NCBI GenBank assembly: GCA_026214975.1
Contig: JAOBSW010001195.1
Span: 248,001 to 312,000 of the forward strand
DNA: 64,000 nt
Reading direction: 5' to 3'
From: Gentiana macrophylla
Taxonomy: Eukaryota > Streptophyta > Magnoliopsida > Gentianales > Gentianaceae
Shown here: in pieces, positions 1,449-63,797 of the stretch
Position numbering within the stretch: position 1 is the stretch's first letter
Layout of the letters: each line of letters starts with the position of its first letter
The notes under the pieces: generated by a model
The model's input: only the letters and a program-made list of their open reading frames with translations
Told to the model about the DNA's origin: nothing
Database searches by the model: none
Translations under genes and position numbers: made by a program

Positions 1449-2963
1449 TGTTTAGGGCCAAATTATAGTGATTTTCATATATATTTTATGAATCAATTTC
1501 CCCCATATATGGATTATTTTCATAGATATCGGGCCTTATAGTCAAATATTGAGTAAATGAGGTTTTTAATGATTAAATATGAAAGCGTATCGATTTTTAT
1601 GTTTATTTGATGTTTTTATATTATTTTGGAAATTATTACGTTTTGGTATGTTTTTGATATTTGTAGATACCCAATTAATGATGGAAAAGATGATCCTAAA
1701 AGGCTAAATTCGAGATGGAAGATGATCAATTAAAGATATGGAAGAATAAAAGAGATAAGGAAAGAAATAAATCAAGATAAAGATGGAAAAATCAAGAAAT
1801 TCGATTTCAAGTCAATATGGACGAGCGTCCATCCCAAGCGACAGCGTTCAATAGTGGGACGGGCGTTTGGTGAAGTGGACGAGCGCCCTAGAAGAGATTT
1901 TACATTCGAGTCTCCAGACGCAAGCTGAGCAGCGTTGACTCTCCGTCCAAGGCAAATGGGCGGGCGTCCATGTATTCAAGCGAGCGTCCGCCGCCGCTTT
2001 GCCTAAACCGACTTAATCTTCTATTTAAACAAAACGTCGCCCCAACCCTAAGGGCATCCATATTTTCTTCACATCAAAAAAGAGCACTGCCGCATCTTGG
2101 AGAGTTGAAGGCGGTCACCCGAGCCTTGTGCTCGGGTGAACCGAGGTTAGATTAGGAGTAGATTATGTAGCTTTTCTTTTCGTTTCCATGGTGTTTCAAC
2201 CATTGTATCCAAGACTATGTGAGTTCTCTTATGATTAATTTAATTCCAGTTTTTCTTCATTACGCTTGATTTAGTTTGTATTTTTCTATGCGATTTGTAT
2301 GCCATGTGAATTAGAATCGAAAGATTAGTTCACGATTGATGTTTATAATACGGAAGTTGCGTAAAGCGCTAGATCACCATAGAAAGATAGGGTTTTAGCC
2401 ATTAATGATGACAAGTTAATGAGTTAGATTCCTAGGTTGTTAGGTTCTTTAAAAGCGAGAGTTAATTGAATCTACACCCGAGTTTTGTTTGGTAAATCAG
2501 TCTCAACACTCGAAAGATGAGAGATAGATAATTGAATTCACTACTCAAAGTAGGCTTTCATAGCTTGAGAGATAAGTTAACTAAGAGAATAGGGATTTGT
2601 GTCTCGTGAAAGGGTGAAACCACAAAGCGAATTAGAATCATGAGATTAACTAGAATTGAAATCACTTAGGTTTGTACTTTGGTTGTTCCCATGTTTCTTA
2701 GGTTAGATTTATTTTGATTGTTCGTTTATGTTTTTCGGTTTTTATGTTTTGTTCTTTCGTTCCTTTTGTTTATTCATTCTTTGAGTAACAATTGAGAGAG
2801 TTAATGAAATTAGATTCAACATCCCAATTCCCTGTGGATCGACCCCTTACTTATCTCGCTGTACTATCAACAACCCGGTATTCGGCCAGTTAGGAGTTAG
2901 TTTTGCATATAGGTTAGGGTTATAAATTTTCTTTTGTTTTAATGATGCAAAATCTCCCCAACA
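1449..2963 (+). mobile_element. Solo LTR (1515 bp) of an Athila-related family, 5-bp TSD GGAAG
   Basis: The insert starts TGTTTAGGG and ends CCCCAACA, so TGTT/AACA termini are inverted. GGAAG flanks it at 1444-1448 and 2964-2968, and removing it plus one GGAAG restores the pol sequence seen in Athila-2 at about 60070. No internal region or second LTR is present, so it is a solo LTR left by LTR-LTR recombination. Plus orientation is suggested by the order of GACG-type repeats (about 1810-1990), a TATA-like stretch near 2017 and a CCCTGTGGATCGACC motif at about 2830 near the 3' end, as in the other LTRs here. Short ORFs inside it are not meaningful. Confidence 0.92.
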
Positions 2964-4243
2964 GGAAGCTTGTCACCTTCTCTTAGAAACACATACTTAA
3001 GATGTTTAGGCAACGGCTTCAATACCAAATCCGAAGGGGGGTCTTCTAAACTAGATTTGAGCTCTCCACCTTTCAACTCAACATCATTTGAGTTTCTTGA
3101 GCGGTCCCATCTTGCCAAAACTTCACCTTCCAGCAACTCATCCTCAAATTCAGCTTCTAACTGCTCTAGACTTACCACACCATGATTATTCAAATTATCA
3201 ATCAGTCGCTCATACTCCGTTGCAACAGCCATGACTTGCTTTTCCATTAAATCATCGAAGTCATCAGACGTATCCTCAATGGAAAAACCGGTTGGAGGAC
3301 CAGAGGGTACCTGAGTGAATTTGGAGACAGTATAGCTTACCTCTTGATCACCAACGCGTATTGTCACTCGCCCGCCATCACAGTCAATGAGGGCTCGTGC
3401 TGTAGACAGAAAAGGTCTTCCAAGAATTAGGGGAACATTTTCATCCTTTTCAATGTCCAGGACGTACCAGTCGACAGGAAAGGTAAACCTATCGATTTGA
3501 ACTAGGATGTCCTTTAAGATTCCCGCTGCTTTCTTAGAAGATCTATCAGCGAATTGCAAATTCATGGTAGTGGGTTCTATAAGATCCATTAAACCCAGCT
3601 GTTTGCACACAGACAATGGCATTAGGCTTATAGATGCACCCATGTCGCACAAAGAGTTAGGGAAGACCAGGCCTCCCATTAACACGGTAAGCACGAACAT
3701 TCCAGGGTCACCTCTCTTGGTTGGTAAGTTATCGTAATTGATCATTGAACAATCCTCACCAATCAGCCTCTCCATGTCTGACAACTTCTTTTTCGAAGAA
3801 ACAACATCCTTGATAAATTTTGTATACTTAGGCATTTCAACCAAGACATCTGATAATGGAAGATTTACCTGAGTATTTTTCAAAAGGTTTAACACATTTT
3901 CATACTTCTTATCTTCACTTAAAGGGATGTTGCTCTTTCTTGGTGGAAATGGAAGCTTTTTCAGATCATTCTCAGAGAAGACTTTCTTTGAAGATGCATT
4001 GACAGCTTTGTCTTCCAGATCCTTCCACCTAACGGCTTTTTCAATCTTTTTATTAGTCAGGGGATCAGCCTCCTGACTTTCACTTGAATCTTCATTCCTC
4101 AGGGGATCAGCCACCTGAGGACTTCCAGCTTTTTCACCTCTCAGGGGATCAGCCACCTGAGTATTCTCTTTCGGCCAAGGGGAGTGTAGGTGCTCAGCTT
4201 CCCCTCCTGCCTTATCAATGGCAGGAGGGGCTAGTGGTTTCCC
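2964..4243 (-). CDS. Athila-1 protease and N-terminal pol ORF, reached by -1 frameshift
   Basis: This frame is open from the slippery heptamer at 4243-4237 to the solo LTR at 2963, about 425 codons. There is no ATG near its start: the first start-like codon is a GTG at 4156, which fits entry from gag by -1 frameshifting. After a linker with three imperfect ADPL-containing repeats (about 4160-4050) comes a retroviral-type aspartic protease with LCDMGAS at about 3640-3660 (other copy LCDLGAS) and the ILGRPFL segment. Protease cleaves the polyprotein in the particle. The frame is intact here but stops a few codons inside the solo LTR, so the original product is broken. The same region of Athila-2 has an indel. 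Confidence 0.85.
4201..4243 (-). promoter_or_regulatory. Putative -1 programmed ribosomal frameshift signal, Athila-1 copy
   Basis: Read on the minus strand: heptamer GGGAAAC (4243-4237) in register G GGA AAC with the gag frame, spacer CACTAG (4236-4231) ending in the gag TAG stop, stem CCCCTCCTGCC (4230-4220), 8-base loop (4219-4212) and the perfectly paired arm (4211-4201). The protease frame continues at -1. The layout is base-for-base that of Athila-2 at 58882-58924. GGGAAAC is a known -1 slippery heptamer in retroviruses; function here is inferred. Confidence 0.8.
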
Positions 4244-28649: not shown

Positions 28650-28655
28650 GAATTT

Positions 28656-28908: not shown

Positions 28909-28939
28909 TTTTCTTTTTATGTTTTGTTTCTCTTGGTGA

Positions 28940-30870: not shown

Positions 30871-30907
30871 TTTGCTCGGGACGAGCAAAAGCTAAGTGTG
30901 GGGGAGT
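30871..30907 (+). other. Element C hairpin and 3' polypurine tract
   Basis: TTTGCTCG (30871-30878) and CGAGCAAA (30882-30889) form a perfect 8-bp stem around GGA; the tract GCTAAGTGTGGGGGAGT follows directly up to the LTR start. The PPT primes plus-strand DNA synthesis. Confidence 0.85.
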
Positions 30908-35022: not shown

Positions 35023-35060
35023 ACTACCCCCCACTTAGACTTTGGTCGTCCCGAACAAAG
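35023..35060 (-). other. Element D 3' polypurine tract and hairpin
   Basis: On the minus strand: CTTTGTTCG and CGACCAAAG pair at eight of nine positions around GGA (35060-35040), followed by TCTAAGTGGGGGGTAGT up to the LTR. Same layout as element C at 30871-30907. Confidence 0.8.
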
Positions 35061-38000
35061 CATCGATAAGTGATTCCCCAAGACACATTTTCCGTGGTCA
35101 AATCATACTTACACAAGAAACTCGAGTCAACTCATACCACTTATGCTCATAAGGTATCCATTATTCGCTACTCGCTATGAATCGAAGTGATGTGTGCATG
35201 TGCATTCAGTTTTATATAATCGAAGCAAGATTAGAGTTTATGCTAACTTCGTAATCTCAACCTACCAACATCAGCATTCCCACTTCTTAAGCCTCGCAAT
35301 GGGTAAAGACATGATGCAATAAGCAAGAGCGTCATCTGGAAGGTTTTTGGACTTGGAGACCGAGAAAAATACTCAAGCCTCTTAAAAATTTGATTTTTTT
35401 CTCATTTTCATCATTTCAAACTTTACCACTTCTCAAGAAAGAAACTTGCTTTAAAAGTAAAGTATGCATTGCAAGAATCCCTCTCTCACGGATTAGTGGA
35501 AGCATTGAATATTACAACAAGCGCGGGGCTACTTTGGTATTAATGTTACTACAAGCCCAGTGTTTAACTTATTGTCAAAACACAGATAATTCTCAAGCTT
35601 ATTACTCCGCTTTGATGGCTAGAAGATAAGAATACATCAGCAGATAAATTCCGACACTAGGTTTGCATAACCAATCATCTACGCAATGTACACATAATTT
35701 CTTCAGTTATTATGATTTGTGCGGTAAAACTCGATTCAAAGATTGAGTAATCGAATAATAAATAACTACTTGCAACAATCGGCATGAATATCCTTAAATT
35801 TACATTCACATAAGTATAAAGTGATCACGTACTCATGCAACTTGGTTCCTTTCCTATCAATTCTTAGCTAGGAACTCACAATACTAAGGGTACGAGATAA
35901 ATAATATGGCATTTATTCAATTTTTTCACCGTTTCATTCAATTTTCAATTATAACATATCATAGCTAAGTCTCCTACCCCCCACTTAAACATGTCATTGT
36001 CCCCAATGACAAATAAAAATGAGAATTTAAGAAAAAGACTTAGCTCTGGAAACGGCTCTCAAGTAGATGCAGAACATCGGATTAATCCAAGCACGTCGTG
36101 GAGAAGCAAGTGAAAACCTGTTTAAGCAAGCCAAACAGAAACTCCACGAGATCGTTAATAACATGTCAATGGGAGTTACAAATTAATGTGGCAGTAATTA
36201 GATATAAAATATCCAAAAACAAATTAAGCCACTTTATTCCATACAACCAATGACAAGTAAAACCAAAGAGTTAAAACTACTCGTTCAGACCTTAAAAATA
36301 AAAATACTAAATAGAAAGAAAGATAAACAAGCAACTAAAGATGGTAATCTTATCTATAATCTCCACCGCTTAAATATGCTTAAAACAATTTGAGAAGACA
36401 AAGATCAAAAAGCATTACCCCATGGGAGAACACGAGGTTTACTAGATTGATAAGATATTTAATCCATCGTAAAAGAGAAACTTGGTCAGGTATAACAGAT
36501 CGGATGTGACCAATTGGTAGAAGATAGGATCAGAAACTCGGCGCAGACGCTTCACGTGTGGATTGGATATCAACAACTTAGGGAGATGTAGCTTCTCCTC
36601 GAAATTACTAATAACCCAATGTATCACGTAAAGGTCAACACCATCATCAACAAGGTCGGATCGGTGTGATATCAAAAACTCATCATCTATATGTGCCGGA
36701 AGGGTTGGAAAAGGGTGAACTTCAAAACTTCCGGTAGAAAGAGAAGTTGGATTTTGATCGAACCGAAAACTTGTTAAAATCTAGCTAGGGTCAGAGCTAC
36801 ACGTACCCCAACTAGGATCACGAAAACCAAAATGATAAAAGATAATCATTAAAACTTAGCAATATTTCCAATTCCGCAACACAAGGGTATTTTGTAAAAT
36901 GGAGGTTTAGAGTATGATGGGTTTAGAAAAAGAAATACAAGGATGGTAAGAAAAGATAAAGGGTGGGTAAGAAATTGTGTTTTGGGTGGGGATTGTTTAA
37001 GGATTGGGTAGGGTGGGAGAGTGAAATAGATGGAAATAAAGAGAGGGGATGAAAGAATGGTTAGAAATGTGATCTGTTAGGCAGATTGGTGAGAGAATAG
37101 AAAGGTTGAAGGGTGAAAAGGTACAAAGGAAAGGATAAGGGTAGTTGCAGAACGAATTGCACACAACTTTGGATTTTCACTCGGATCGCCATTCTAAAAA
37201 GTTTTGGAAGTTGACCAAAATTGTTCTTGTTCGCACCAATCATTCTCTGTTACATTTTCAGTAATTCTCAAGCTCTCTTAATGCTTCCATCTTAAGGTTG
37301 ATTGCTAAATTTCCTTTTCTTTAGCAATTTCTCAACTCTCCTAAGAAACTCTAATTCACGTGGCCTATATTGAGTAAAAAAGTTTTGCACATCCTTAGCC
37401 TAATGGCCATCGGAACACGGCAAAATAAAAAACCTCAACATATGTCACGTTACTCTTATTGGACTCAAAGAAAACAAAACCTAAAATCCTAAAAAGAAAT
37501 CCTAAGGGTTTTAAAGAAGCGATTACGAGTTTAAAGTCCTCAGTTCGACTTTCCAAAAGAATCCTTGTCAGTCATCCTTCTTAGATCGCTAGATGTTGAC
37601 CCTTCAAAGACTATACGGTGGGCTCATCGCTTTTATGGATTAATACCCTTCCCTTGGTTGTGAGACCTAGAAAGCGACATTTATCCATACCATTTATACA
37701 AAGCTCTTACCTCAGCTCTCATTTTAGGAATGAGTGAATTCTAAGAAGATTTAGTCCTAGGGACCCATTTTAATCACATCCTCTATAATGCTGCTTCATT
37801 ATGCTCTCTCAAAACTCACCGTTTTTTTTAGATTGCGAATGCTTAAACTACACAAATTGTTGCTCCCATGGCCACCAGAAGCAATCTCATGCATAGGACA
37901 AGGAGATTTTGACAGAACTACGATGAACTCTTTATTCACTGCTTCCTTCAACTGCTACATGTTTCCTTACACCCTCTAGATGAGACAGATTTGGGGCAGA

Positions 38001-38612
38001 ACCTTCAACACTAACAAAATTAATCTTTTAAACCAACTCCAGGTTAAGATTCATACTCAGGTTCATGTAAAGACTAACTTATGTTCAAAAACCCAAAAGA
38101 TAGTAAAACATAAGCAAAAAAGGTAGTACCTTGCCTTCAACATTGTACCATGAATAATTCGAACCTTAATATTTATTTTCTCGGAGCCATCTTGGTGTTT
38201 TAAAGGTGTTTCTTCCATTGCTTTCCCATCGTAGATTTGTAGCTTCACATGTTGCTGGGTTATTTTCTCAACGCCCGCGAAAATTACTGACTCGGATTAT
38301 TGCTTCCCTGGTTTTTGCAAACAGAAGAAAAACAAAACGAACCGTAGACTGATTTTAACATGGTTTCCCATGCTTCTATCAGACCTACGGATTAAACATA
38401 CGGAGATAAACAGACACGCGAAATTCCGAAAGCAGAACCAGGCTCATTTGGCGAGAGGCGATCTCGGCTGGGAGCGAAACCAAATTATTCAGATTCTGGA
38501 ATTTTTACACAGAAAGCGAACAACGAGAGGACTCAAAAGCATAAACAGACTCTAAAGCAGAAAAACTCGACATGAATAAAAAATTATTTATATATAAAAT
38601 TGACCGTTGGTT
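35061..38612 (-). other. Element D internal, non-coding, with a second hairpin-PPT unit
   Basis: I find no retroviral protein motif in 3.5 kb. At 36010-35993 (minus strand) GTCATTG and CAATGAC form a 7-bp stem around GGGA, and TTTAAGTGGGGGGTAGGAG follows at about 35988-35970, a second polypurine tract about 950 bp before the functional one. The rest is AT-rich with ORFs under 65 codons and looks like eroded sequence. Confidence 0.65.
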
Positions 38613-38629
38613 CCCCGGCAACGGCGCCA
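38613..38629 (-). other. Primer binding site for tRNA-Asp, element D
   Basis: Minus strand TGGCGCCGTTGCCGGGG, six bases inside the 5' LTR end at 38636. Confidence 0.93.
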
Positions 38630-38635
38630 AAAACT

Positions 38636-40349
38636 TGATGATGTAGATCAAGTGAAATTAAAATACTTGACCACCAAAACCAATACTAGCAAGAGAACTA
38701 GGTCCATCGTAGTATAGCTATAGCGAATCAAGGTCGATCCCACAGGGAACCAAATTGTGGATCATTTATATATAAACAATTAATCATTCATGCCGAGCAC
38801 ATAAAGGCGGTCTACGACCAACAAAAGATAATAAAAGTAAAGGACACGACTCGACACAACACATATAAAGACACGTAATTAACCTCCCCAATTATCATGT
38901 TATCGTTTGGATCTAGAAATTCTATATAATTAAGCTAGACTCGACAACTTTTAATCCAATTCGTATTCCTTTTATAGTGGCTACGGGAGTCATCCCTAAA
39001 CTAGATCTAGCTCGGTTAGGCCATCTAGATCACTATGCTACATCACGTGACTTCGCTCGCCGGCCTCCATCTCATATGACTTGCACGCTTACAAAACTAG
39101 GGATGCCGATATTAACCGTATTCCTCACCTAGGCAACATTCCTTTTTTCAGGCGTACTTCCTAGACGATCGCATCAGTCTCCATCCCATTAACACTAACT
39201 TTTAGGTATCATGTTAATCTACGATTTACGTATAACTAGGTGTGCACAATTCCTGTCTGAGCAGATCTAGATCTCATTTGAAAGTCCCGGAAGATCAATT
39301 CATGAGCCGACCTAGAGCCCTATATTGGTATTTCCTAATCATACGCTAATTAAAGCAGACGAGCAACGTAGCCGTAGCCATACCTACTAAGATACGAAAT
39401 TCTAGTGGACAATCACACCATAAAGACGTGGCTAGATTGACGCGGCGAAAACCTAAATCTTAGCGTTTCTACATACGTAACGGATAAAATAGAGACTCAT
39501 AAAGCAATCATATAGATCTACTAAAAACACGGTTGCCGATCATACCAAAGTCATCTATAGGTCACCGGATAACAGATCTGGGCGTGTGGATCCTTATAGA
39601 CAAGGAATCCCCTCTGCCTCATATCGTACCCTTAGATCTACATCGTCCGGTGAAGAACGAACAACCTCAAACGATGAACAATAATTGGGGACTTAATTAC
39701 AAAGAACTAAGAACAAATAAATACAAGAACTTACATTATTGCAGATCTTGCATAAAAACTGCTCTAAGAAAAACTGAAGATTTAATTATGAATTGTGTGT
39801 ATGTATTGAGGTGTGTTTGGGGTGTTCATGCATGCCTTTATTTATAGGGGTTCAAGCTAATTAAGAGATATACTTTAAAATGTCAAAACAAATAAGAGAT
39901 AACTATTGGCCGATCCCCAAAAGATGTAGTGCGCCCCCCTTCATGCATATCCTCAAAGTTGGCGCCATCTTGGAGCCTTTTGTCATGCTTATCCGATCTT
40001 TTCGTGCTAATCCGATATTTATCTTGAATTTCCTTTGATTTATCTTGAGATTTAATTCTTCCATTTGTATTTATCCTCCATAATTATCCAAATCTGCAAA
40101 ATAGATATTTATCCAAAATAAATCATATTTAAATAAAACGGATAAATATAATAAAAACGGATAAATACCGATTTATAAATAAAAACAGATAGATACCAAT
40201 AAAAAATGGACAAATACCAAATTATATAATATAAATCACATACATTAAATAATCCATATAAACAGGTGATTTATCATAAAATATATATTATTACTCTCGA
40301 TTTAAGGTCAACGTTGATGACTTTTACGGGTATAATTTGACCGTCATCA
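38636..40349 (-). repeat. Element D 5' LTR, 1714 bp
   Basis: Near-identical to 33282-35022. TATA box on the minus strand at 39846-39839. The GGATAAATA repeat run (about 40130-40225) has one unit fewer than the other LTR. Confidence 0.93.
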
Positions 40350-43011: not shown

Positions 43012-45834
43012 TTCTCACAAACAACTTCTCCGGCCTAAGGAAACACGTATCAATAGAGAGTGAGGCTATGGCAGCAGCTTTTGGCACCAGGATGGGAAAC
43101 ATGACCAAAAGACAGTCAGATCATAATCAATGATCATATCTATTGAATCCAAATTATATACTCTGATCAGTACCGCCGAAACCACCAACATCATTCTATT
43201 ACAACAATAGGATGATGCTGCCAAAAATGGGGAAAGAAGTGATAAGCCTGAAGGATCAACAGTCAGACCCCCACACTTCACTGAAGAACAGCTCAGAGCC
43301 AGAGATAGAGAATTAAGAATAAGAAACGAAGTTGATGAACAACAGAGAAATGCATTGGAGGAAAGAGAAAGAGCAAAGAAAGTGATATGTCATGGGCTAC
43401 CTTTTCCAATTCAAAGGAAAGATGATGACAGAGACAAATCAGGCAACCAGCAAAGGCCTGGATCTAGTCAAGCTAGAAGCTCCTCAAGTCAACATCGATC
43501 CAGCACTAGCTAAAGCAGTGTCAGTAGACAAAGACAATCAGCTGGAAGTTTTTCTGGTCAGAAAAGAACCTTCACTGCCTACAGAAACATGGAAGAGAAA
43601 GAGGCAGTAGTTTTGGATAATGTGACAGAATTTTTCAGAAATCAAGATAGCATGTATCCTAACCGGTCACAAGATGAAGCTTGGGAAGATTGGCTTAGTT
43701 ATCAAGATAATGAGATAAGGGTAGATATGGAAAGGATCTACAATGAAGGAAAGAATAAGTATGCATCTCTTAGGAAAATATCCAAAGAAGCAGCATCTGG
43801 CTCAACCAACAGACCTAATCTGTGAGTACCTTCTAATGCGAAAGGAACGGAGGACTTATCTAGTGAGAAGCAGGAAGAATTCAATAACATGGTGAAATAA
43901 TTCCGTCCAATGAGTAGGCTGAACCCATCACAACAATGGATGATGTATAAGGATTTAAGTTTGCAGACCCTCACATTGCTGAATCTAAGAATAGACTAGA
44001 GAAGTACTTTGGAGAGCCATAGGCAAATGAGACTCTGCCTGACTTTCACAGACTCATCAATAGGAAAGTATTCTTGGGCATCTCTGAACACTTTGCTTTG
44101 CGCATCTTTGGAAATGAAAGTTTTCGAAGTTGGTATCTCGGATTTTATCTAATGAAAATAAACAAGTAATAAATTTATAAATCCGGTATACCCCAAGTGC
44201 AGGGATCGTAGTATAGAGGTTAATACCGGGTCGATCTCACAGGGAATCGAGGTTGTTTATCTAGTTTATTAATCTTTCTAAAGATTTGTCACGAAAAACA
44301 CAAAACAAAGTTAAAACGAATACAATAAACTGGACAGAGGGTTGTCAATCCAAAGCCAGGAAAGATAATTGCGAACCTAAAATAACTAATTCTATTCTAT
44401 AAACTAAAAAGAAAACAAACTTCTAAGAAAACAACGAAGAACAAGGCACAAAGATAATTTCAATTAATTTTAACGAAGAACAAGCAATGATCCACCTATC
44501 TCGCAACTCTCAATTTCTACCCTAGATCGTTTAGTGAAGGTTTAATAAAGATGTGGTTCACCTATCAAAGGTATGAATTCCTACTCTCGTAGATAATTCG
44601 CCTATTAATCTTTCATCTCTCGATCTTAAAGATTAACGCTTCCATAACAAAGGTGTAAGATTTCTCAATCTAGCAACCTAGAAATTTAACCTAGCAACTC
44701 TCGTTATTTTTAGGTTAAAAATCTAATCTTTACTACGATGATCTAGGTCTAACAACGATTTTCATCAAACGTTAAACATCACAAAGCAACAATCCATCGA
44801 TATAATTGCATAACAAATAAACACATAATAAAGAAACAAACTGTAAATAAAACTCACAAAGCATCCAAGAATCGAAATCAAGTTGTTGCAGAGATTGGCT
44901 TCACACGCTTGTTCAAATCTCTTAGCCTTTATTCATCGTTACTATAAGTAAAAAGTAAAAGAAAAGGTGTTTAAAGTAGGGGAAAAACTCAGAAAAATCG
45001 CCCCCCAAGGGGCCTGGGGCGGCCAGGGGTGAATTGTGTGTGTTAGGGTTTAGAAAAACGCGACTATTTATAAGTTTCTAGGTCGGTTTAGGCAATGGCG
45101 GCGGCTGGACGCCCGTCCATGAATTCTGGACGCCCGTCCAAGGTGCATAAATTCGTCGAGTCGGGCCGAGCTGGATCAGACGCCCGTCCTATTACTTTCT
45201 GGACGCTCGTCCATAGAAAATCTGAACATCCTGAATCAACTTCTCCTCCGGACGCTTGATCCACTGGGGACGGGACCTCAAACGCAAGGCCCGGACTTGT
45301 AAAGCTTCATTCTACCTTCGACTTGCATCTCCTTCCTTCCATTTAATCTTCAATCAAACATATTTTCAGCTCATTCCTTGCCATGCAAATTGTACCTACA
45401 AGATAATAGAAATGTGCAAAATGTAGAACCATATATATTGATGAAAAATCACTAATAAAATCACGTAAATAGCTCGATTTTGCATTTTAATGATTTCCAC
45501 ACCCATTCTTTCAATATTTCATTTAAACACTTACTTTTCTATAAAAAGTAATAAAACACGAAGGAAATTACTACGAAATAATATCATATATATCGTAAAA
45601 ATCACCGTTAACATTGACTGGAAGGACATGGAAGGTATCTAGACTACAAAGTTCAAGAGGTACAAAGAGAACCTAAGTAAAATGTAGTTGTAGCATTCTG
45701 ATTCAGCCTTGAACTATTTGTTGCCCTTCATGGACGAATAAAATTGCTGACTTTTATTATATTTATTACTTGAATTTTTTGCATACTTATGTTTAGGCTT
45801 ATGAGGGTTTTGGCATCATCCAAAAGGGTGAAAT
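43012..45834 (+). pseudogene. Copia-2 internal 3' region with decayed third ORF
   Basis: A second copia element of the same general type, entered by copia-1. The coding traces are broken: a frame at about 43290-43530 rich in Arg, Glu, Ser and Gln, then 43589-43825 with NVTEFFRNQDSMYPNRSQDE and a following acidic segment. Stops interrupt every frame. After 44130 an Athila-family solo LTR intervenes; host sequence resumes at 45614. The polypurine tract TTTTGGCATCATCCAAAAGG lies at about 45809-45828. I recognise no enzyme motif; the position before the PPT suggests an SIRE-like third ORF. Confidence 0.6.
44131..45613 (-). mobile_element. Athila-family solo LTR, minus strand, 1483 bp
   Basis: Minus strand starts TGTTAACGGTGATTTTT (45613) and ends near GGATACCA (44131). 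It matches the Athila LTRs in overall order: GACGCCCGTCC array (about 45105-45250), TATA-like TTATAAATAG at 45073-45065, GGGTCGATCT motif on the plus strand at about 44230. No convincing 5-bp duplication is visible (GAAGT left, TTGAC right), so the site has decayed or recombined. Confidence 0.82.
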
Positions 45835-52843: not shown

Positions 52844-53879
52844 CGCAGCTCATTCAGCCCCATATCATACTTGACGGACTTTAGACTTTTCTTAGGCGAT
52901 TTAGGGGCGATTTTAGTGTAGTTTGATCACCCTTTGATCCTTTGATTCCCTAGATAACTTCCTTTGATTCTACACAACCTTTATAGTTTAGATTTACTTT
53001 TCAAGAACAAAGATTCGACTTTTGGATCGCTTTTATCTTTGGTATTTTCTGGATCAGTTTTTCTACAATTACATGGTAATGATTTCTCTTTCATTTATTG
53101 TCTTTGCTTTGATTTCAATTCTTATTTCGTTTATTAGCATAATTATGAGTAGCTAAATTCATGTGTAGTCGAATTATGTGAAAGCGAGCGAAAACCCTAA
53201 GGAGGATGAGATTGGGAGTTGTGTAGTGCGTAAATTATTGTTTAAACGATTAATTCACGGCCTAAAAATTATTTTAACATCTTTGAATTAGATTGATCAC
53301 CTAGTTCACTTTCACACACATCGAACTTATAGATGTATTTTGCGGTGAGATGTGGGATAAGGGGTTTTAGGATCGTTGCGTAGATTCGGCCTAGTTGTTA
53401 GGTCCAAACCCAATACAGAGGTTTGTCATCGTTGTTCGAGCGACTCTAGAGCTTAATCATGTTAGGTTAATCAGTTTTCTAAAAGGAGAATTAATTAACT
53501 TCACATAGGGTGGTTAGATCGAGTTGTTCAGTCTAATCGCTAGAATTAGGAGTTGGCACCCATGGATGTCGTTAAACTACATTGGATAGGTAGGTCGGTT
53601 AAGACACGCTCCTGTTAAGTCCTTCCCAGGGGCAAAAGAGCTCGTGGGATCATAGTTTGACTATACCCCTTTAATACTTGTAAGGCACTCGTTAGTATAA
53701 CCTTTACTTTTGCATTAGTATAATACTCTCCACAACTATTTTGACCCGAACTAAGTTCTAAGTTGACTTTGGTACTTAGACATTACTCCCTGTGGATTTG
53801 ACCTTGAGGCCACTATACTACCGTTGACCCGATACTGGTCGGTTAAAGTTAATGTTAGTTATTTTGCTATCAAGAATTT

Positions 53880-53896
53880 TGCGCCGTTGCCGGGGA
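53880..53896 (+). other. Primer binding site for tRNA-Asp, element E
   Basis: TGCGCCGTTGCCGGGGA, lacking one G relative to TGGCGCCG in the other elements, starts seven bases after the LTR end. Confidence 0.78.
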
Positions 53897-55041: not shown

Positions 55042-56587
55042 TGTTAAGGGTGTTTTTATATGTTTTATAAGGCTATATTTTATGATAATTTCCCCCGTAT
55101 TTGTATGATTTGCATAAGAAATGAGTGTTTAACGGAAGTATTGAGTGAATGAGGTTTTTAACGAGCTATTCACAAAATTTGTTGATTTTGGTGTTTTAAT
55201 CTTGATTTTATGATAATTTGAATGTTATTACATTTTGCGATGCTTTTATGTGTTATAGATACATGTTTGAGGCTCAAGAGATGATCAAAAGTTGATTAAG
55301 TTTGAGCTAATTGATGATAAAAGAGATAATGAAGGGATGGGATAGAGGAAAAGAGATAAAGATCAAGAAATCGAACTGATCATATTGAATGGCGTCGGGT
55401 CCCGCCGAGTGGGACGGGCGTTTGACATCTGGACGGCGGCCCGGAGGAGCTTTTACATTCAGGATGTTCAGATTTTTTCTGGACGAAGCGCCCAATTTAA
55501 AGAAGGACGGGCGCCGATCCACTTCGCCCGACACGAAGAAGTTTACACAAGTTGGACGGGCGTTCACCCTTTCCGGACGGGCGTCCAGCGGCCGACATAG
55601 CAGAACCGACTTCGAATTCTATATAAAGGCAGCATATTTTCATACCAATTACACATTACTCAAAACCCTAATCCTAGGGGCGGCTTCAGGCTGCGATTTT
55701 CCTTAGTTTACAAACAGTTTTTCTTAGATACTTTTATGCACTTTTATTCAAACAATTCCAAGTTTCAAGAGGATGCTTAGAGGCTAAAAGCCTTGAACGA
55801 GCGTTGTGAAGCCGTCCAACTCAACAATTCAGTTCCGTTCTTGATTATTTTGTGAGTTTTTTAACATAAGTTGTTTCTTTTATCATGCCTATTGTTATTT
55901 ATGCAATTCCATATCGAAAGATCGTTGCTTGTTGATTGTTTTATTTGATGAAAATCATCTAAACGTTAGATCACCATCATAAGAGAATAGTTATTTGATC
56001 TATATAACGAGAGTTAATAGGTTAGATTTCTAGATTGAAAATGTTAATGTTTACATCTTTGGTTAGAAGAAGCGTTAATCTTAGATCGAAAGATAGAGAT
56101 TAATAGATGAACTATCTAAGAAATTAGGGTTCGTACTTTAGATGAGATGAATCACAACTTGGTTAGAAATCATGAAATAATCTGAATTGGAATTGAATGT
56201 TGATAGGATAGGTGGATCAACCGCCGCTTGCTCGTTATAATTTGATCAAATCCCTTAGAACTTGAATTGTTTAGTTAATCAATTTCCTTTATTGCATACT
56301 AGGTTTAGTTTAGTTTAAATTGGTTCGAAACTATCTTTCCCGGCTTTAGATCTTATCTTTCATTCGATTTCATTTATTGTTATCCTTCGTTTTAGTTATT
56401 CCCTGTTTAGTTTATTTGCTGTTTAATTTTAGTAATCGTGACATAGGTTAGTTAGTTAAGCAAAGACTAGGATTCCCAATCGTTAGTTCCCCGTAAGATC
56501 GACCCGGTATCAACCTCTTTACTACGACCCTTGCACTTGAGGTATATCGGATTATAAATTTATTACTTGTTAATAAAATCCATGACA
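55042..56587 (+). repeat. Athila-2 5' LTR, 1546 bp
   Basis: TGTTAAGGGTGTT to AAATCCATGACA. About six GACGGGCG-type repeats lie at 55410-55595, followed by TATATAAAG at 55620-55628. GATCGACCCGGTATCAACC at about 56499 is near the 3' end. Confidence 0.95.
55620..55628 (+). promoter_or_regulatory. Athila-2 TATA box
   Basis: TATATAAAG, about 25 bases after the last GACGGGCG repeat. Confidence 0.7.
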
Positions 56588-56593
56588 AGTTTT

Positions 56594-56610
56594 TGGCGCC
56601 GTTGCCGGGG
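56594..56610 (+). other. Primer binding site for tRNA-Asp, Athila-2
   Basis: TGGCGCCGTTGCCGGGG, six bases after the LTR. Directly downstream AACTAG and CTAGTT (56611-56630) can pair around ACGGTTGC, similar to the hairpin of the element C module at 28887. Confidence 0.93.
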
Positions 56611-57159
56611 AACTAGACGGTTGCCTAGTTTTTGTTTTTTCGTTTTTCTTGTTTTTATTTCGTTTTAATTCCTTTTTTAGTTGATAATTGTTTAGGTTAG
56701 TGGGATATTAGAGTTTTAGTTAGGATTTAAGATCTTCTCTTTATATAGTTCCCTTGTGATTAGTTCCTTCTTTCTATCTGCCTTTCTGTTTTTCTGTTTT
56801 TCTTTTCCTGCCGTTCTTTCCATTTCTCGCCGTTTTACGCTTTCCAAACGGGCGCCTAGACCGATGGACGCCCGCCTGTTTCTAAATTTTTCAACTCGAA
56901 CTGCTTTTGACTGTTGGACGAAGCGTCCATCCAATTTGGACGTCCGCCCACTTCTTCAACCTATCGGACGAGCGTTTTGATTTCCAGGCGCCCGCCTAGT
57001 TCAATTTCAGCCAGCACGCCCGCCCGTGTTTCGGACGTCCGTCATGCCCCTTGTCTTAACTATTTTTCATTTCTTTTTCTCTCCTTAGGCTTTAATTTTT
57101 AGTTTAGGCTTTTAATTTCTTAGTCTTTAGGTTTCTTTCACTTGTTTTTGGTCCGGTTT
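56611..57159 (+). other. Athila-2 leader
   Basis: Non-coding leader with a second cluster of GACG/CGTC-type repeats at about 56840-57045, as in the Athila-1 leader. No gene seen. Confidence 0.75.
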
Positions 57160-58894
57160 ATGCAAACTCGGAGTCAAAAGGGACCGTTACTATACACCCC
57201 CGACCCTGAGCGAACCGTAGTCCGGCCAAACAGGAGGATCTTCCATTCTGCGGTTCTGGCAGGTAGAGCCGAGCAAGATCTTGAGGATCAGTTAGCCATG
57301 GAGATCACTGATTTTGTAATAATGGATGCTAATGATAGACGTATGTTGGCAGACTACGCCATGCCTGGCGCAGTCACAGTCAACCCGGCTATTGTCATTC
57401 CAGCCATCACTGCACAGACCTTTGAGCTAAGGCCGGGACTTATTCAGATTATGCAGCATGCATCTATTTTCCATGGTTACCAGTCAGAGAATCCCCATAC
57501 TCACTTACATACGTTCTTAGAGATATGCGGCACCACACGCATCCAAGGAGTAAGTGAGGATGTCATCAAATTGAAACTCTTTCCTTTTTCGTTGAAGGGA
57601 GAAGCTAAGGAGTGGTATAGCTCTCTCCCCTCTGAATCTATTACCACCTGGGCCGAACTCGAAAAGGAGTTCTTGAGTCAATACTTCCCACCTACAAAAA
57701 AGCATTGTTGTTTAAACGAGATTTTCACTTTCTACCAGAAAGAGAATGAATCCTTCTTCGATTGTTGGAAAAGATTCAAATCTCTTCTTAGAAAGTGTCC
57801 CCACCACGGCTTGCCACTGGAAAGGCAAGTCAACACCTTCTTTAGTGGATTGACCGAGCTTACAAAAGGCATGGTCAATAGTTCATCCGTGGGGCGATAT
57901 CAAGAAAAACGCTGATGAGGATGGGCCTTTGTTTGAGGACATTGCAAAGTACACTACGCCTCTTATCAAGCAATTCAAGCACGTCCTTCTCCTCTTAAGG
58001 TAGAGGAGGTAAACATGCAAAGTTTGATCGCCATGCTGCAAAAGCAGATGGCAGCATCTCAAGTTTCAAATCCGATAAATCAAACTTCCTCTTTTCCATA
58101 GAACCCTCAGGTTTTGTACTGTGAAAACTGCTGTCAGACTGGCCATATGAATGGCCAGTGTCAATTCAATCCCCCTGCACCTTATCAAGTGAATGTTGTT
58201 CATGATTATGGACCAAGATAATCAAGTCACATGTCAAAATTGTGACGAGGTGGGGCACATCCAAAATTCTGGCCTATGAACGGGCCAGAATGGGGAAGTA
58301 AATGCATTCTATGGCCAGAACAATCAAAGGTCTAATCAAGTTTACCGCCAGAATAATTTCCAAAACCACGGGTTTAATCAATCTTCCAGTTTCAATCCTA
58401 ATTCGAATTTTAATTCGAATCAAAATTTCAATAGAAACCTTGGTTTTAATCAGAACCAAAACTCAAATTTTTCCAATCCTACTCAAAGATTCAATCAGAA
58501 TTGGCCTTCCAATTCAAATCCTCAATTTCAAAGTCGGCCCAGCCAGCCCTATGCTCAAAATTTCCAAAACTCTCAAGGCCCCTCCCAATCTAACAATCTT
58601 GAGGCTAAACTAGAGGAGCAAAATAAAAGTATCCAACTCCTGATGACTACAAATAAGAACCTTGAGAGGCAAATTGGACAACTGGCTGAGCAGTTAGCTT
58701 CTAGACCCCCAGGGCAACTGCCCAGTTTCACTGAGAAGAATCCAAAGGGTGGTCAAGTTGCTCAAACCGACTTGAATAAAGGCCCGTGTACTGACCTCAT
58801 ACCTTCAATTCCTTATGGTAGAGAGGAGGCCAGTGCAATGAAGTTAAGAAGTGGTACTCAAGTTAGTGGTCCTTCCCACCAGGGAAACCACTAG
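57160..58894 (+). pseudogene. Athila-2 gag
   Basis: Start at ATG 57160 (MQTRSQKGPLLYTPDPERTV), which is also the start in Athila-1; codons upstream lack an ATG. Capsid core to about 57880: FELRPGLIQIMQHASIFHGY, FLEICGTTRIQGVSED, TWAELEKEFLSQYFPP, CPHHGLPLERQVNTFF. A frameshift near 57890 gives an early stop at 57913. A CCHC knuckle (CENCCQTGHMNGQC) is at 58120-58161; a second (CQNCDEVGH) at about 58230 has lost its last Cys. An Asn/Gln-rich stretch follows (58290-58560), then a helical-looking tail with LEAKLEEQNKSIQLLM and ERQIGQLAEQLASRPPG. The last frame ends at TAG 58892-58894, inside the frameshift signal. Confidence 0.9.
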
Positions 58895-58924
58895 CCCCTC
58901 CTGCCATTGATAAGGCAGGAGGGG
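58882..58924 (+). promoter_or_regulatory. Putative -1 programmed ribosomal frameshift signal, Athila-2 copy
   Basis: Slippery heptamer GGGAAAC (58882-58888) read in the gag frame as CAG GGA AAC, so both tRNAs can re-pair at -1. Spacer CACTAG (58889-58894) contains the gag stop. Then stem CCCCTCCTGCC (58895-58905), loop ATTGATAA (58906-58913) and GGCAGGAGGGG (58914-58924), eleven perfect pairs. The -1 frame continues into the protease linker with no ATG. Conserved in Athila-1 at 4243-4201. Confidence 0.85.
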
Positions 58925-60015
58925 AAGCTGAGCACCTACACTCCCCTTGGCCGAAAGAGAATACTCAGGTGGCTGATCCCCTGAGAGGTGAAAAAGTTGG
59001 AAGTCCTCAGGTGGCTGATCCTCTGAGGAGTGAAGAAACAAGTGGAAGTCGAGGTCGATCCCCTGACTAATAAACAGATTGAAAAAAAGTTGTTAGGTGG
59101 AAGGATCTGGAAGACAAAGCTGTCAATGCATCCTCAAAGAAAATCTTTTCTGAGAGTGATCTGAAAAAGCTTCCATTTCCACCACGAAAGAGCAACATCC
59201 CTTTAAGTGAGGATAAGAAGTATGAAAAGGTGCTGAATCTCTTGAAAAATACTCAGGTAAGTCTTCCATTATCCGAGGTCTTGGTTGAAATGCCTAAGTA
59301 TACAAAATTTATCAATGATGTTGTTTCCTCAAAAAGGAAGTTGTCAGACATGGAGAGGCTGATTGGTGAGGATTGTTCAATGATCAATTATGAAGACTTA
59401 CCAACCAAGAGAGGTGACCCTGGAAAGTTCGTGCTTATAGTGTTAATGGGAGGCCTGGTCTTCCCTAACTCTTTGTGTGACCTGGGTGCATCTATAAGCC
59501 TCATGCCGATGTCTGTATGCAAACAACTGGGTTTAATCGATCTTCTAGAACCCACTACCATGAATTTGCAATTCGCTGATAGATCTTCTAAGAAAGCAGC
59601 GGGAATCTTAAAAGACGTACTAGTTCAAATCGACAGATTTACCTTTCCCGTTGACTGGTACGTCCGGGACATTGAAAAGGATGAAAATGTTCCCCTAATT
59701 CTTGGAAGACCTTTTCTGTCTACAACTCGAGCCCTCATTGACTGTGATGGTAGGCGAGTGACAATACACGTTGGTGATCAAGAGGTAAGCTATACTGTCT
59801 CCAAATTCACTCAAGTACCCTCTGGTCCCCCAACCGGTTTTTCCATTGAGGATACATCTGATGACTTCGATGATTTCATGGAAAAGCAAGTCATGGCTGT
59901 TGCAACGGAGTATGAGCGACTGGTTGACTTTGGCAGTGGGACCGCTCAGAAAACTCAGAGATGTTGAGTTGAAAGGTGGAGATCTTAAGTCTAGTTTAGA
60001 AGACCCCCTACAGAT
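58887..60015 (+). pseudogene. Athila-2 protease region
   Basis: Frame entered at -1 from gag. The linker has ADPL-type repeats at about 58970-59060, an indel near 59050 that gives TAA stops at about 59066, and resumes in frame by about 59095. The aspartic protease has LCDLGAS with the catalytic Asp at 59479-59481, then FADRSSKKAAGILKDVLVQI and ILGRPFLSTTRALIDCDG. The frame is closed at 59967 after a deletion near 59925 that removes the NNHGVVSLEQLEAEF segment seen in Athila-1. Protease would process Gag and Pol. Confidence 0.87.
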
Positions 60016-61544
60016 TTGGTGATGAAGCCGTTGCCTAAACATCTTAAGTATGTGTTTTTAAGAGAAGGTGACAAGCTTCCTTTAATTATATCTGCCAAGC
60101 TGTCTCGTCTAGAAGAAATGAAGTTAATAAACGTCTTGAAAAAGAACGAGAAAGCCTTTGGGTGGCAAGTAGGAGATATCATAGGGATATCTCCCGACAT
60201 CTGTATGCATAAGATCAAGACCAATGAGGGTGCGAAATGTGTCAGACAGCTGCAGAGGAGGCTCAACCCTCATATGCAAGAGGTGGTTAAGAAAGAAATC
60301 ATCAAACGTCTGGACATGGGAATCATCTATGCCATCGCTGATAGTGAATGGGTTTCCCCGACTCAGGTAGTTCCCAAGAAAGGTGGGATTACGATTGAGA
60401 AGAATGAGAAGGGAGAGGAAATAGCATTGAGACTTGTCACTGGTTACATAGTCTGCATTGATTATTGAAAGCTCAATGAGGTAACCATGAAAGATCATTT
60501 TCTCCTTCCATTCATTGACCAGATGCTTGAACGCCTGGCGGTACACGCATTCTATTGCTTCCTGGATGGATATTCAGGATACTTCCAAATACCCATTGAT
60601 CCAGCTGACCAAGAAAAGACCACTTTCACTTGCCCTTATGGTACATTCGCCTACAGGCGAATGCCATTTGGTCTCTGCAATGCCCCAGCTACATTTCAAA
60701 GATGTATGCTGGCTATCTTTGACGGGCTCGTAGAAAAGTGCATGGAAATCTTTATGGACGATTTTTCAGTCTTTGGTCAGTCCTTCGATGACTGCCTTGA
60801 CAACCTTGACCAGGTCTTATCCAGATGCGTGGAAAAGAACTTAGTGCTCAATTGGGAAAAATGCCATTTCATGGTTGATGAGGGAATAGTTCTTGGCCAC
60901 AAAATCTCCGCCAAGGGTATAGAAGTTGACAGGGCAAAAGTAGAAGCTATCGAGAAGATGAGTTATCCCAAGAATGTGCGTGAAGTGAGAGGCTTTCTTG
61001 GACATGTCGGTTTCTACAGAAGATTCATTCAGGACTTCTCCAAGATAGCCAAGCCCCTGTCTACTTTACTTAAAGAAGACGTTGAGTTTAATTTTGATGA
61101 GAGCTGCAAGCAAGCGTTTGAGGAGCTTAAGGACCGTTTAATCTCTGCTCCAACTCTTATATCGCCTGACTGGAACCTACCTTTTGAGCTTATATGCGAC
61201 GCATCAAACTATGCGATTGGTCTTTGTTTTAGGACAAAAATCAAAGGAAATTCCAGCCAATCTATTATGCCGACCACACATTGAATCCCTCGCAAGTTAA
61301 CTATACTACTATAGAAAAGGAATTATTGGCCGTAGTCTTTGCTATGGACAAGTTTCGTAGTTACTTGTTAGGTGCTCACGTGATTGTGTGGACTGATCAC
61401 GCTGCTTTGCGGTATCTGATGACTAAGAAAGAGGCTAAACCGCGCCTCACTGCGTTGGATCCGACCTACAAGAGTTTGACGTTCAAATTAAAGACAAAAG
61501 GGCGTGAAAACGTAGTGGTGATCACGTTCGAGAATGTTAAGTGA
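60016..61544 (+). pseudogene. Athila-2 reverse transcriptase and RNase H
   Basis: RT begins with KPLPKHLKYVFLREGDKLPL and KKNEKAFGWQVGDIIG. A TGA at 60466-60468 replaces the Arg of the CIDYRKLNE motif, which fits a CGA-to-TGA change. Then [34 protein letters not shown] and catalytic FMDD at 60751-60762. The connection has [20 protein letters not shown] and FLGHVGFYRRFI. RNase H starts at ELICDASNYAIG (about 61190), shifts frame near 61225-61285, and resumes with [20 protein letters not shown] and VIVWTDHAALRYLM. A stop at 61542 follows a shift near 61455. Athila-1 is open across the RNase H join. Confidence 0.92.
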
Positions 61545-61559
61545 GGAAAATGATGATCC

Positions 61560-63013
61560 GCAGACGATATAGATCTTTACTTTCCTCAGAGAATATCATG
61601 CTTATCGATGGCTGCCCCTCGATGTTCCATGGTATTCTTCCATTGTAAATTACCTTCATGCCCGATATCTCGATCTAGAATTGTCCTATCAGGAGAAGAA
61701 AAAGTTCTTCTCTGATTTGAAATCTTTCATTTGGGATGAACCTTATCTTTTTAATATCTGTAAAGATGGTCTGCTTAGAAGATGTGTTCCAGAATCTGAG
61801 CAACGTGATATTATTGAGCAGTGCCACAGTGGACCCACTGGAGGTCACTTTGGTCCGTGGAAAACCGTTGCTAAGATCTTCCAATCCGCTTTCTATTGGC
61901 CTACATCTTTAAGGACACAGAAGCTTTCTGTAAAGCTTGTGATAGGTGCCAGAGAACCGGTACTCTGACAAGGCGTTTTGACATGCTTTTGAAACCCATC
62001 CTAGAATGCGAAGTCTTTGATGTATGGGGTATCGATTTTATGGGACCATTCCCATCATCTTGTGGTAACAAATACATCTTAGTCTGCGTGGATTACGTGT
62101 CCAAATGGGTGGAGGCTCAAGCCACTCCTCACAATGATCATAAGACGGTCATGAAATTTCTAAAGAAAAACATCTTCGTGAGGTTTGGATGTCCACGTGC
62201 CTTGATCAGTGATGAAGGGACACATTTCTGCAACCGACCCTTAGAAAAAGTGCTCGAAAAGTATGGTGTCCGTCATAAGACTGGCACACCATATCATCCT
62301 ATGACGAGTGGTCAGGTTGAAAGAAGCAACCAAAGTATTAAGAAGATCCTGGAAAAAATGGTCAAAAGTCATAGAAAAGACTGGAGTTTGAAGTTGGATG
62401 ATGTACTATGGGCATACAAGACCGCCTATAAGACTCCTATGGGTACATCTCCATATCAAATGGTTTATGGTAAGCCATGTCATCTGCCAGTCGAGTTAGA
62501 GCATAGAGCTTATTGGGCTACAAAGTTTCTGAACTTTGATTCCCAATCTTCTGGTAAGCACCGACTACAAATGATTGCATGAGTTGGATTTAATTCAGAC
62601 TCCAGGCCTACGAAAGCGCCAGGATTAGCAAAGATAAGATGAAACTCCTCCATGATGCCAAGATTAAGAAGAGAGAATTCCATGTAGGGGAACAAGTTCT
62701 TCTGTATAATTCCAGGCTACATTTGTTCCCTGGTAAGCTGAGGACACGATGGTCCGGTCCCTTTGAGATTCTCCAAATTATTCCTGAAGGTGTTCTAGAA
62801 CTGCGCGGTTATGGCGACCAACTGTTTCGAGTGAATGGTCAAAGGTGTAAGCACTACATTGGTGAACCTAAGGAAAATCCTTTGATTGTTCGTTTCCTCG
62901 ATATCCTCGGGTGTGGTGCTACAAAAGTCGAAGACTTTGATGAGTTTTCACCCGACCTGTTTTCAGAGGATGACGGTAGTGGTCGATCTAAAGAAGTTCT
63001 AGCAGGTAGTTAG
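61560..63013 (+). pseudogene. Athila-2 integrase
   Basis: The zinc-binding HHCC domain has [20 protein letters not shown] (about 61826), a frameshift near 61900-61920, then [11 protein letters not shown]. Core: first Asp GIDFMGPF at 62034-62036, second Asp ISDEGTHF at 62211-62213 (spacing 58), Glu GQVERSNQ at 62319-62321 (spacing 35). A shift near 62575 precedes the C-terminal DNA-binding part (FHVGEQVLLYNSRLHLFPGK, RWSGPFEI). A stop TAG lies at 63011-63013. Integrase inserts the DNA copy into the genome. Confidence 0.92.
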
Positions 63014-63226
63014 GATATGGAAGAGTATGAGAGGGAGCGTCAGCTGAAACGTCATCAGAAGACTCAAAAGATGAAGAAGTCAACCATGGGGAAGTTCAAA
63101 CGTGTTTGGAAAGCTATCAAAGATTTCACCCCATGTGTTAAGTGCTGTTTCTGCAGCCGAACTACTGATCAAAGTCTAGACGAGGTAGTGGCTGGCAGAA
63201 AAGTCAAATGGCCTGATCCAGGCTGA
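63014..63226 (+). CDS. In-frame basic, Cys-containing tail downstream of Athila-2 integrase
   Basis: It starts three bases after the integrase stop and in the same frame, so it is either a separate short ORF (ATG at 63017, 69 codons) or the original pol C-terminus behind a nonsense change or a leaky TAG. The product is very basic (RQLKRHQKTQKMKKS) with a CVKCCFC cluster, and ends at TGA 63224-63226. I recognise no domain. Twelve bases after its stop the first two-hairpin module begins. Confidence 0.5.
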   Translation, partial: DMEEYERERQLKRHQKTQKMKKSTMGKFKRVWKAIKDFTPCVKCCFCSRTTDQSLDEVVAGRKVKWPDPG

Positions 63227-63238
63227 ACTTTAAACGGT

Positions 63239-63290
63239 GTCGAGCTAACGACATTAACCAAAAGCGCCACTAGGAGGCATCCTAGATATC
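63239..63290 (+). other. Two-hairpin module, Athila-2 copy 1
   Basis: GTCG (63239-63242) and CGAC (63249-63252) around AGCTAA; linker ATTAACCAAAAGCGCC; CTAGG (63270-63274) and CCTAG (63281-63285) around AGGCAT. An alternative outer pairing is AGCTAACGA with TCGTTAGCT at 63287-63295. Lies 12 bases after the stop of the pol tail. Confidence 0.72.
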
Positions 63291-63398
63291 GTTAGCTTTA
63301 GTTATTTTTGGTTTGTGCTTTTGTAGTTTTAGTTATTTAAGTTTAGTCTACTAAGTTTTCTTTTTGTTGTATCTGTCAGTTAGTTGTGCTTTCTAGAT

Positions 63399-63797
63399 AT
63401 GGATTTCGGAGTTCTACCAGAGGAGTTACCCTTCCTTAGGAGGATCCCAGTTATCACTGTAGATGACGGACCGGGAGGGACTATCGTTTTGCACGTAGAT
63501 TTTGATATTAGTACCCGCATCAGGACTGTCACCTATGTTCTTATTGTCCCCCGCTGTTCGGGAGGTGGAGATTTCACTACTGAGGAGTTGCAGGCCGCTG
63601 TAGGACGTCCTTACACAATCCTGAATGATCCGATGCTGACAGATTTAGCGTTAGTGCTGCAAGCTGAACATTTTCGAGGTGTTGATGTAGCTGGTGAGGA
63701 TTGGGGTTTGCAGGATGAGTATGACTTCCCTCCGGCAATTGATATGCTCCGCCGTCTTATCCGGGTGATAGATTGGTCGGAAATTTACGATGACTAG
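63399..63797 (+). CDS. Orphan 132-codon ORF downstream of Athila-2 pol
   Basis: ATG at 63399 (MDFGVLPEELPFLRRIPVIT), stop TAG at 63795-63797. The start fits better than the upstream in-frame TTG. It is acidic, with DGPGGTIVLHVDFDISTRIR, GGGDFTTEELQAAVGRPYTI and a C-terminal DMLRRLIRVIDWSEIYDD. I see no signal peptide, membrane segment or known catalytic motif, and do not recognise it. It sits where Athila elements have their env-like ORF but is much shorter. It is intact in an element whose gag and pol are broken, and is bracketed by two-hairpin modules at 63239 and 63815. Confidence 0.55.
   Translation: MDFGVLPEELPFLRRIPVITVDDGPGGTIVLHVDFDISTRIRTVTYVLIVPRCSGGGDFTTEELQAAVGRPYTILNDPMLTDLALVLQAEHFRGVDVAGEDWGLQDEYDFPPAIDMLRRLIRVIDWSEIYDD

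What the first reader, a model, noticed from the sequence alone, without database searches (positions are those of the whole stretch)
58882..58924. Textbook -1 ribosomal frameshift signal between gag and pol of an Athila-lineage element
Seen directly: GGGAAAC in register with the gag frame (CAG GGA AAC), a six-base spacer ending in the gag TAG, and a perfect 11-bp GC-rich stem with an 8-base loop. The pro-pol frame continues at -1 with no ATG near its start. Known: heptamer of type X XXY YYZ, a 5-9-base spacer and a strong stem define -1 frameshifting, and GGGAAAC is used by some retroviruses. Inference: this element sets its Gag to Pol ratio by frameshifting, whereas Athila elements are usually described with a continuous or differently joined gag-pol. 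I do not know of a description in this lineage.
Basis: partly seen in the sequence, partly recalled or inferred. Interest (0 to 1): 0.92.

Follow-up and report, generated by a model that had tools for sequence, protein, structure and literature searches.

The report
Plant retroelement with -1 frameshift signal
A plant retrotransposon appears to make its enzymes by having ribosomes slip back one base at the end of its coat-protein gene, as many retroviruses do; its plant relatives are mostly described as using one continuous gene, so this looks like a new variant of a known control mechanism.

Summary
Copy A (58882-58924): GGGAAAC in gag register, 6-nt spacer ending in the gag TAG, perfect 11-bp stem, 8-nt loop. 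The window holds a second, diverged copy B on the minus strand with the same heptamer, stop and stem at 4243-4201. In B the -1 frame is open for 434 codons, through protease; in A it closes after 62 codons. A metagenome relative (P0001, 54% identical) ends its gag at the same residues, QGNH. A and B differ mainly at synonymous sites in the gag frame (dN/dS 0.10, 0.18) and the -1 pol frame (0.20), yet share 150 identical bases across the signal. Decay of one copy cannot explain this. Best reading: -1 programmed frameshifting between gag and pol in an Athila-like Ty3/gypsy family. A 2016 review gives only +1 layouts for plant elements of a 2003 survey; Athila-type consensus elements are described as single-ORF.

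The parts
58882..58888 (+). slippery heptamer GGGAAAC, copy A
58889..58894 (+). 6-nt spacer ending in the gag stop TAG (58892-58894)
58895..58924 (+). perfect 11-bp hairpin, 8-nt loop, -24.6 kcal/mol
58867..58894 (+). 28-nt overlap of the gag frame and the -1 frame, where the shift has to happen
58847..58996 (+). 150-nt block identical between copies A and B (minus-strand counterpart 4278-4129)
57160..57915 (+). gag N-terminal part of copy A (Retrotrans_gag domain)
58280..58894 (+). gag C-terminal part of copy A, ends ...LRSGTQVSGPSHQGNH stop
58882..59067 (+). -1 frame continuation in copy A, 62 codons before private stops
59083..59967 (+). protease part of pol, copy A, in the -1 frame (Pfam protease matches weak, below the curated cut-offs)
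60469..62582 (+). RT, RNase H and integrase parts of copy A (several frame breaks)
56594..56611 (+). primer binding site of copy A (fits the plant tRNA-Asp 3' end as recalled)
55042..56587 (+). 5' LTR of copy A (start is a BLAST boundary; end read by eye)
4237..4243 (-). slippery heptamer GGGAAAC, copy B
4231..4236 (-). spacer with gag stop TAG, copy B
4201..4230 (-). same 11-bp hairpin, copy B
2942..4243 (-). -1 frame of copy B open for 434 codons, through protease (its last few codons lie in a later insertion)
4050..4165 (-). three QVADPL/QEADPL repeats in the -1 frame of copy B, each able to form a short hairpin; possible accessory structure

Best explanation
This is a -1 programmed ribosomal frameshift site between gag and pol of an Athila-like Ty3/gypsy retrotransposon family. 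Most ribosomes read CAG GGA AAC CAC and stop at TAG, giving Gag. A minority, stalled by the 11-bp hairpin six bases downstream, slip back one base on G GGA AAC and continue into protease, RT, RNase H and integrase, giving Gag-Pol. Shown: the anatomy, two diverged genomic copies with the same layout, the mark of selection on both frames, the same gag end in a distant relative. Inferred: that slippage occurs in the plant, at what rate, and that it sets the Gag to Gag-Pol ratio.
For: Heptamer in register, spacer 6, perfect stem; none in 100 simulated strands; most stable 40-nt window in both copies. Copy B: same signal, -1 frame open 434 codons. Overlap of 28 nt containing the heptamer. P0001, 54% identical over the whole query, ends at the same QGNH. 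A versus B: dN/dS 0.10 (193 codons) and 0.18 (190 codons) in the gag frame, 0.20 (276 codons) in the -1 pol frame; read in the other two frames the ratios are 0.92 to 2.90. 150 identical nt around the signal, reached by 0 of 5000 shuffles; flanks differ at 72 of 539 and 62 of 929 sites, so about 13 differences were expected (my arithmetic). No pol-frame ATG for about 400 nt. G_GGA_AAC is named among the most shift-prone heptamers with mammalian ribosomes (PMC5009743, passage).
Against: Only two genomic copies, both with broken coding elsewhere; in copy A the -1 frame is closed by three stops before protease. P0001 gives amino acids only, starts inside gag (so its own copy may be partial or damaged), and its pol was not seen; P0122 ends before the site. 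The identical block reaches 72 nt past the stem and may partly reflect gene conversion or recombination: dS falls from 0.61 and 0.40 in gag to 0.18 in pol. In the linker (53 codons) the -1 frame ratio is 1.31 on only 5 differences, so it does not show which frame is read. Three unrelated heptamer-plus-stem sites exist in the window. No convincing pseudoknot and no measurement in plant ribosomes.
Confidence: 0.87

Rival explanations
1. Decay: a chance indel in one dead copy broke an originally continuous gag-pol ORF, and the hairpin is incidental.
For: Copy A has several other frame breaks and stops; consensus Athila-type elements have one ORF (PMC1142308 passages) and so do 28 of 122 fetched relatives.
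Against: The same stop and frame switch are in copy B, whose LTR differs by roughly a fifth, and the same gag end is in P0001; the gag frame before and the -1 frame after the site both show purifying selection.
Confidence: 0.03
2. Pol is reached by another route, such as splicing out the stop (as in Ogre) or reinitiation at the first pol ATG (59290); heptamer and stem are bystanders or only tune termination.
For: Ogre elements splice an intron between their ORFs (PMC6317226 section 13); BARE1 and EVADE make Gag from spliced RNA (PMC3735527 and PMC12786077 passages). Splice sites were not scored here.
Against: The overlap is only 28 nt and holds a known efficient heptamer at the right distance from the most stable hairpin of the region. 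Reinitiation at 59290 would leave 136 codons of the -1 frame unused, a stretch that is open in B. The one strong donor-like motif I saw by eye, near 59255 in copy A, lies inside pol and not at the junction.
Confidence: 0.06
3. The two-frame layout belongs to a family moved in trans, and the identical 150-nt block is a gene-conversion tract, not constraint.
For: Recombination among Athila families is documented (PMC2410132, start of abstract in the listing and passages); pol divergence is lower than gag divergence.
Against: The pol -1 frame bears the mark of selection (dN/dS 0.20); the tract lies over the signal; P0001 keeps the gag end.
Confidence: 0.04

Closest known systems
Retroviral gag-pro/gag-pol -1 frameshift sites using G_GGA_AAC (several lentiviruses and betaretroviruses, recalled)
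   Same: heptamer, short spacer, stimulatory structure, gag stop just downstream, pol in -1 frame
   Different: element of a plant; plain hairpin without evidence of a pseudoknot
Animal LTR retrotransposons with pol in the -1 frame (28 of 51 in the 2003 survey, as told in PMC5009743)
   Same: LTR retrotransposon, -1 relation, classical heptamer in many
   Different: plant element; that account gives only +1 arrangements for plants
Sirevirus (Ty1/copia) gag-pol junction in plants (PMC5009743)
   Same: plant element, separate frames, an 11-bp stem near the junction
   Different: pol in +1 frame, 4-nt loop; different superfamily (recalled)
Athila, Calypso and Diaspora elements (PMC1142308, passages)
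   Same: gag, protease, RT, integrase order; tRNA-Asp-type primer site (here by recall)
   Different: their consensus elements are described as one continuous gag-pol ORF

Membership tests
-1 programmed frameshift site (eukaryotic X XXY YYZ type) | heptamer X XXY YYZ in the zero-frame register | tested here: met
   GGGAAAC as CAG GGA AAC in both copies
-1 programmed frameshift site (eukaryotic X XXY YYZ type) | spacer of about 5-9 nt and a stable structure | tested here: met
   spacer 6, 11-bp stem, -24.6 kcal/mol; most stable 40-nt window in both copies
-1 programmed frameshift site (eukaryotic X XXY YYZ type) | downstream ORF in the -1 frame overlapping the heptamer | tested here: met
   28-nt overlap; B open 434 codons; A only 62 codons
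-1 programmed frameshift site (eukaryotic X XXY YYZ type) | conservation among diverged relatives | tested here: met
   2 of 2 genomic copies at DNA level; of 2 further gag relatives, P0001 reaches the site and keeps QGNH, P0122 ends before it
-1 programmed frameshift site (eukaryotic X XXY YYZ type) | measured transframe product | not testable with these tools
   needs a reporter or peptide data
Athila lineage of Ty3/gypsy | position in an RT/RH/INT tree | not tested
   no named reference sequences were at hand
Athila lineage of Ty3/gypsy | no second RNase H (present in Tat, Ogre, Retand; PMC6317226) and no chromodomain | tested here: inconclusive
   Pfam found none in the pieces scanned; the copy is broken, 63011-63383 was not scanned, and the element's end lies outside the window
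Athila lineage of Ty3/gypsy | primer site complementary to tRNA-Asp | tested here: inconclusive
   56594-56611 fits the tRNA-Asp 3' end as I recall it; not aligned to a tRNA here
Athila lineage of Ty3/gypsy | single continuous gag-pol ORF (usual, not strictly defining) | tested here: not met
   separate frames in both copies

The most novel reading that the evidence does not exclude
A whole sub-lineage of plant Athila-like retrotransposons has adopted retrovirus-style -1 frameshifting for Gag-Pol, the first such arrangement in plant LTR elements, and keeps a 150-nt RNA element (heptamer, hairpin and perhaps the following row of small hairpins) free of even synonymous change.
Probability: 0.6. 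Interest if true: 0.8.

Novelty: new variant of a known kind. Interest (0 to 1): 0.72.

Why it matters
How plant retrotransposons make more Gag than Pol from what is usually one ORF is an open question; splicing is the plant answer described in the papers I saw. A retrovirus-type -1 site in a plant Ty3/gypsy lineage would add a translational answer, suggest gain or loss of frameshifting within one lineage, and give a compact, testable frameshift signal for plant ribosomes.

Tried and rejected
Relatives at DNA level were sought and not found: viral contigs with the gag piece, the protease piece and the gag alignment A1 and with an exact 20-nt pattern from the signal; genome contigs with A1 and with the B pol piece. 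Rfam gave nothing at E up to 1 for 58700-59200. A pseudoknot between the loop and the next 116 nt: the best match was 5 pairs, four of them G-U; rejected. I first took the feature for decay of copy A, because its -1 frame closes; P0001 and copy B overturned that.

Limits of the counts. The one-chain count (28 of 122; motif search) is not a survey: the protease search admits only proteins of 162-515 aa, 1360 passed and the best 120 were listed; of the 122 fetched, 87 showed the protease motif without LRSG, 1 (P0001) LRSG without protease, 6 neither. A tblastn count gave 28 of 121, not the same 28. skips codons with gaps or stops.

Limits of the literature. Gao et al. 2003 and Wright and Voytas 2002 are not held; I know the first only through PMC5009743 and PMC3735527. 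That no -1 site is reported rests on ten searches of an open-licence library. Against simple novelty: the Retand paper reports gag and pol in two ORFs in the clusters that are not among the 59% with one (passage), and Athila papers tabulate or mention gag and pol or other ORFs separately (passages), in no passage that I saw with a mechanism; unexplained two-frame relatives may already lie in data sets.

Full report
WHAT IS THERE. The gag frame is open from 58280 to the TAG at 58892; the -1 frame has its last upstream stop at 58864; so both frames are open together for only 28 nt, and the heptamer lies there. The -1 frame of this copy runs 62 codons and then meets stops at 59068, 59071 and 59080; protease (59083-59967) follows in that same frame. 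Copy A is damaged elsewhere too: gag changes frame between about 57900 and 58280, and pol is broken at several places.

A SECOND COPY. tblastn of the relative P0001 against the window showed a second copy on the minus strand. blastn puts it at 3198-8082 against 59927-55042 (84% over 4977 columns, LTR included), with a further piece 2-1448 against 61518-60076 (91%). Its gag also ends ...GPSHQGNH and stop; heptamer, spacer and stem are identical. Here the -1 frame is open from 4243 to 2942, 434 codons, through the protease motif, and ends just inside a later insertion. The stops in copy A go with two small length differences in the A-B alignment. B's gag is not intact either: it has a stop at 4560 and a frame break between 5015 and 4965.

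RELATIVES ELSEWHERE. The gag C-terminal piece found one protein, P0001 (319 aa, 54% identity over the full query, longest contig 1509 bp, JGI). It ends where the window's gag ends: LRSGTQ, six residues of which four differ, then QGNH. An end at the contig edge at just that residue would be a strange coincidence, so I infer a stop there, but I did not see its DNA; it also starts inside gag, so its copy may be partial. A second search found only P0001 and P0122; P0122 stops short of the site. By contrast 28 of 122 fetched proteins carry the gag LRSG motif and the protease motif in one chain (a tblastn count gave 28 of 121, a different set), the usual Athila layout. These numbers come from a length-limited, capped listing and are not a survey.

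CHANCE AND SELECTION. Of 279 heptamers of this type on the + strand one, this site, is followed at 4-10 nt by a perfect stem of at least 10 bp; on the minus strand 4 of 286, one being copy B, two the same repeated sequence (23548, 18692), one at 12943; 100 Markov-simulated strands gave none. The three unrelated sites show that the simulation understates the background of real DNA. The hairpin is the most stable 40-nt window of 2762 (A) and 2742 (B). Between A and B, differences fall mostly on third codon positions of the gag frame upstream (dN/dS 0.10 over 193 codons; 0.18 over 190) and of the -1 pol frame downstream (0.20 over 276); read in the other frames the ratios are 0.92 to 2.90. I infer that both frames were translated and selected while the two lineages diverged. 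Across the junction there are 150 identical bases (58847-58996), the longest run in the 4963-column alignment, reached by 0 of 5000 shuffles of the gag-to-protease columns; flanks differ at 72 of 539, and at 25 of 302 plus 37 of 627 sites. The linker has only 5 differences and a -1-frame ratio of 1.31, which settles nothing. Shuffling assumes independent sites, and a gene-conversion tract could mimic constraint.

STRUCTURE. The stretch 58882-58996 folds better than all of 200 shuffles (z -3.1), and so does the 223-nt stretch 4242-4020 of B (z -4.1). Behind the main hairpin come three QVADPL-type repeats in B, 42 nt apart, each able to form a small hairpin; A has two by my pattern. Whether they help is unknown. 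No Rfam family matches.

MECHANISM. The most likely mechanism is simultaneous -1 slippage on G GGA AAC, helped by the hairpin, giving Gag-Pol in a minority of passes. PMC5009743 (passages) names G_GGA_AAC among the most shift-prone heptamers with mammalian ribosomes. Slippage itself, its rate and its use in the plant are inferred.

LITERATURE. PMC5009743 (passages, and section 11 in both parts): in a 2003 survey 28 of 51 animal elements had pol in -1, while just two plant types had separate frames, both +1. PMC1142308 (passages): Diaspora, and consensus Athila and Calypso, have a single gag-pol ORF. PMC6317226 (passages and section 13): most plant groups have one ORF, some two; Ogre splices. 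PMC3735527 (passages): most plant retrotransposons have a single ORF, BARE1 makes Gag by splicing, and most Gypsy elements are said to use +1 frameshifting. PMC12786077 (passage): frameshifting or two transcripts are named as the strategies for plants, animals and yeast together; the plant cases described there are spliced (EVADE, BARE1). PMC11963269 (passages): in Retand, gag and pol share one ORF in 59% of clusters and use two in the rest. PMC2410132, PMC11410651, PMC9181549 and PMC5967125 (passages): separate gag and pol or other ORFs are listed or mentioned in the first two, but no passage that I saw gives a frameshift mechanism for Athila. A search for 'Athila' with 'slippery' returned no paper. 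I found no report of a -1 site in this lineage, in an open-licence library that lacks the two most relevant papers.

VERDICT. Real, shared by diverged copies and, at protein level, by a distant relative, and best explained as a working -1 frameshift site of the family, though both copies here are broken. The kind is known; its place in a plant Athila-like lineage is, as far as I could see, new.

Noticed in passing
window 1449-2963, minus strand: A solo-LTR-like insertion (TG...CA, about 1.5 kb) interrupts pol of copy B, flanked by a 5-bp repeat CTTCC; read by eye. A stretch of it (1480-1670) is 71% similar to part of copy A's LTR.
   Followed up: partly
window 44136-45256: A third LTR-like stretch 67-70% similar to the LTRs of copies A and B, in B's orientation; tblastn with P0001 and P0122 showed no gag beside it.
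   Followed up: partly
window 26732-32835 and 33282-40349: Two pairs of 96-97% identical long repeats, each with the same type of primer site beside one repeat (28656 +, 38629 -) and only 2-4 kb between them; they look like LTR pairs of non-autonomous elements.
   Followed up: no
window 58964-59037; 4165-4050 minus: Tandem 42-nt repeats encoding QVADPL in the -1 frame; the third one in B has a paired C-to-G and G-to-C change at its stem base (read).
   Followed up: partly
window 53871-53896: Another primer-site-like stretch, 88% like that of copy A and 2.7 kb before it.
   Followed up: no
window 63384-63797: Open frame of 137 codons after integrase, the place of an env-like gene in Athila elements; no Pfam match.
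   Followed up: no
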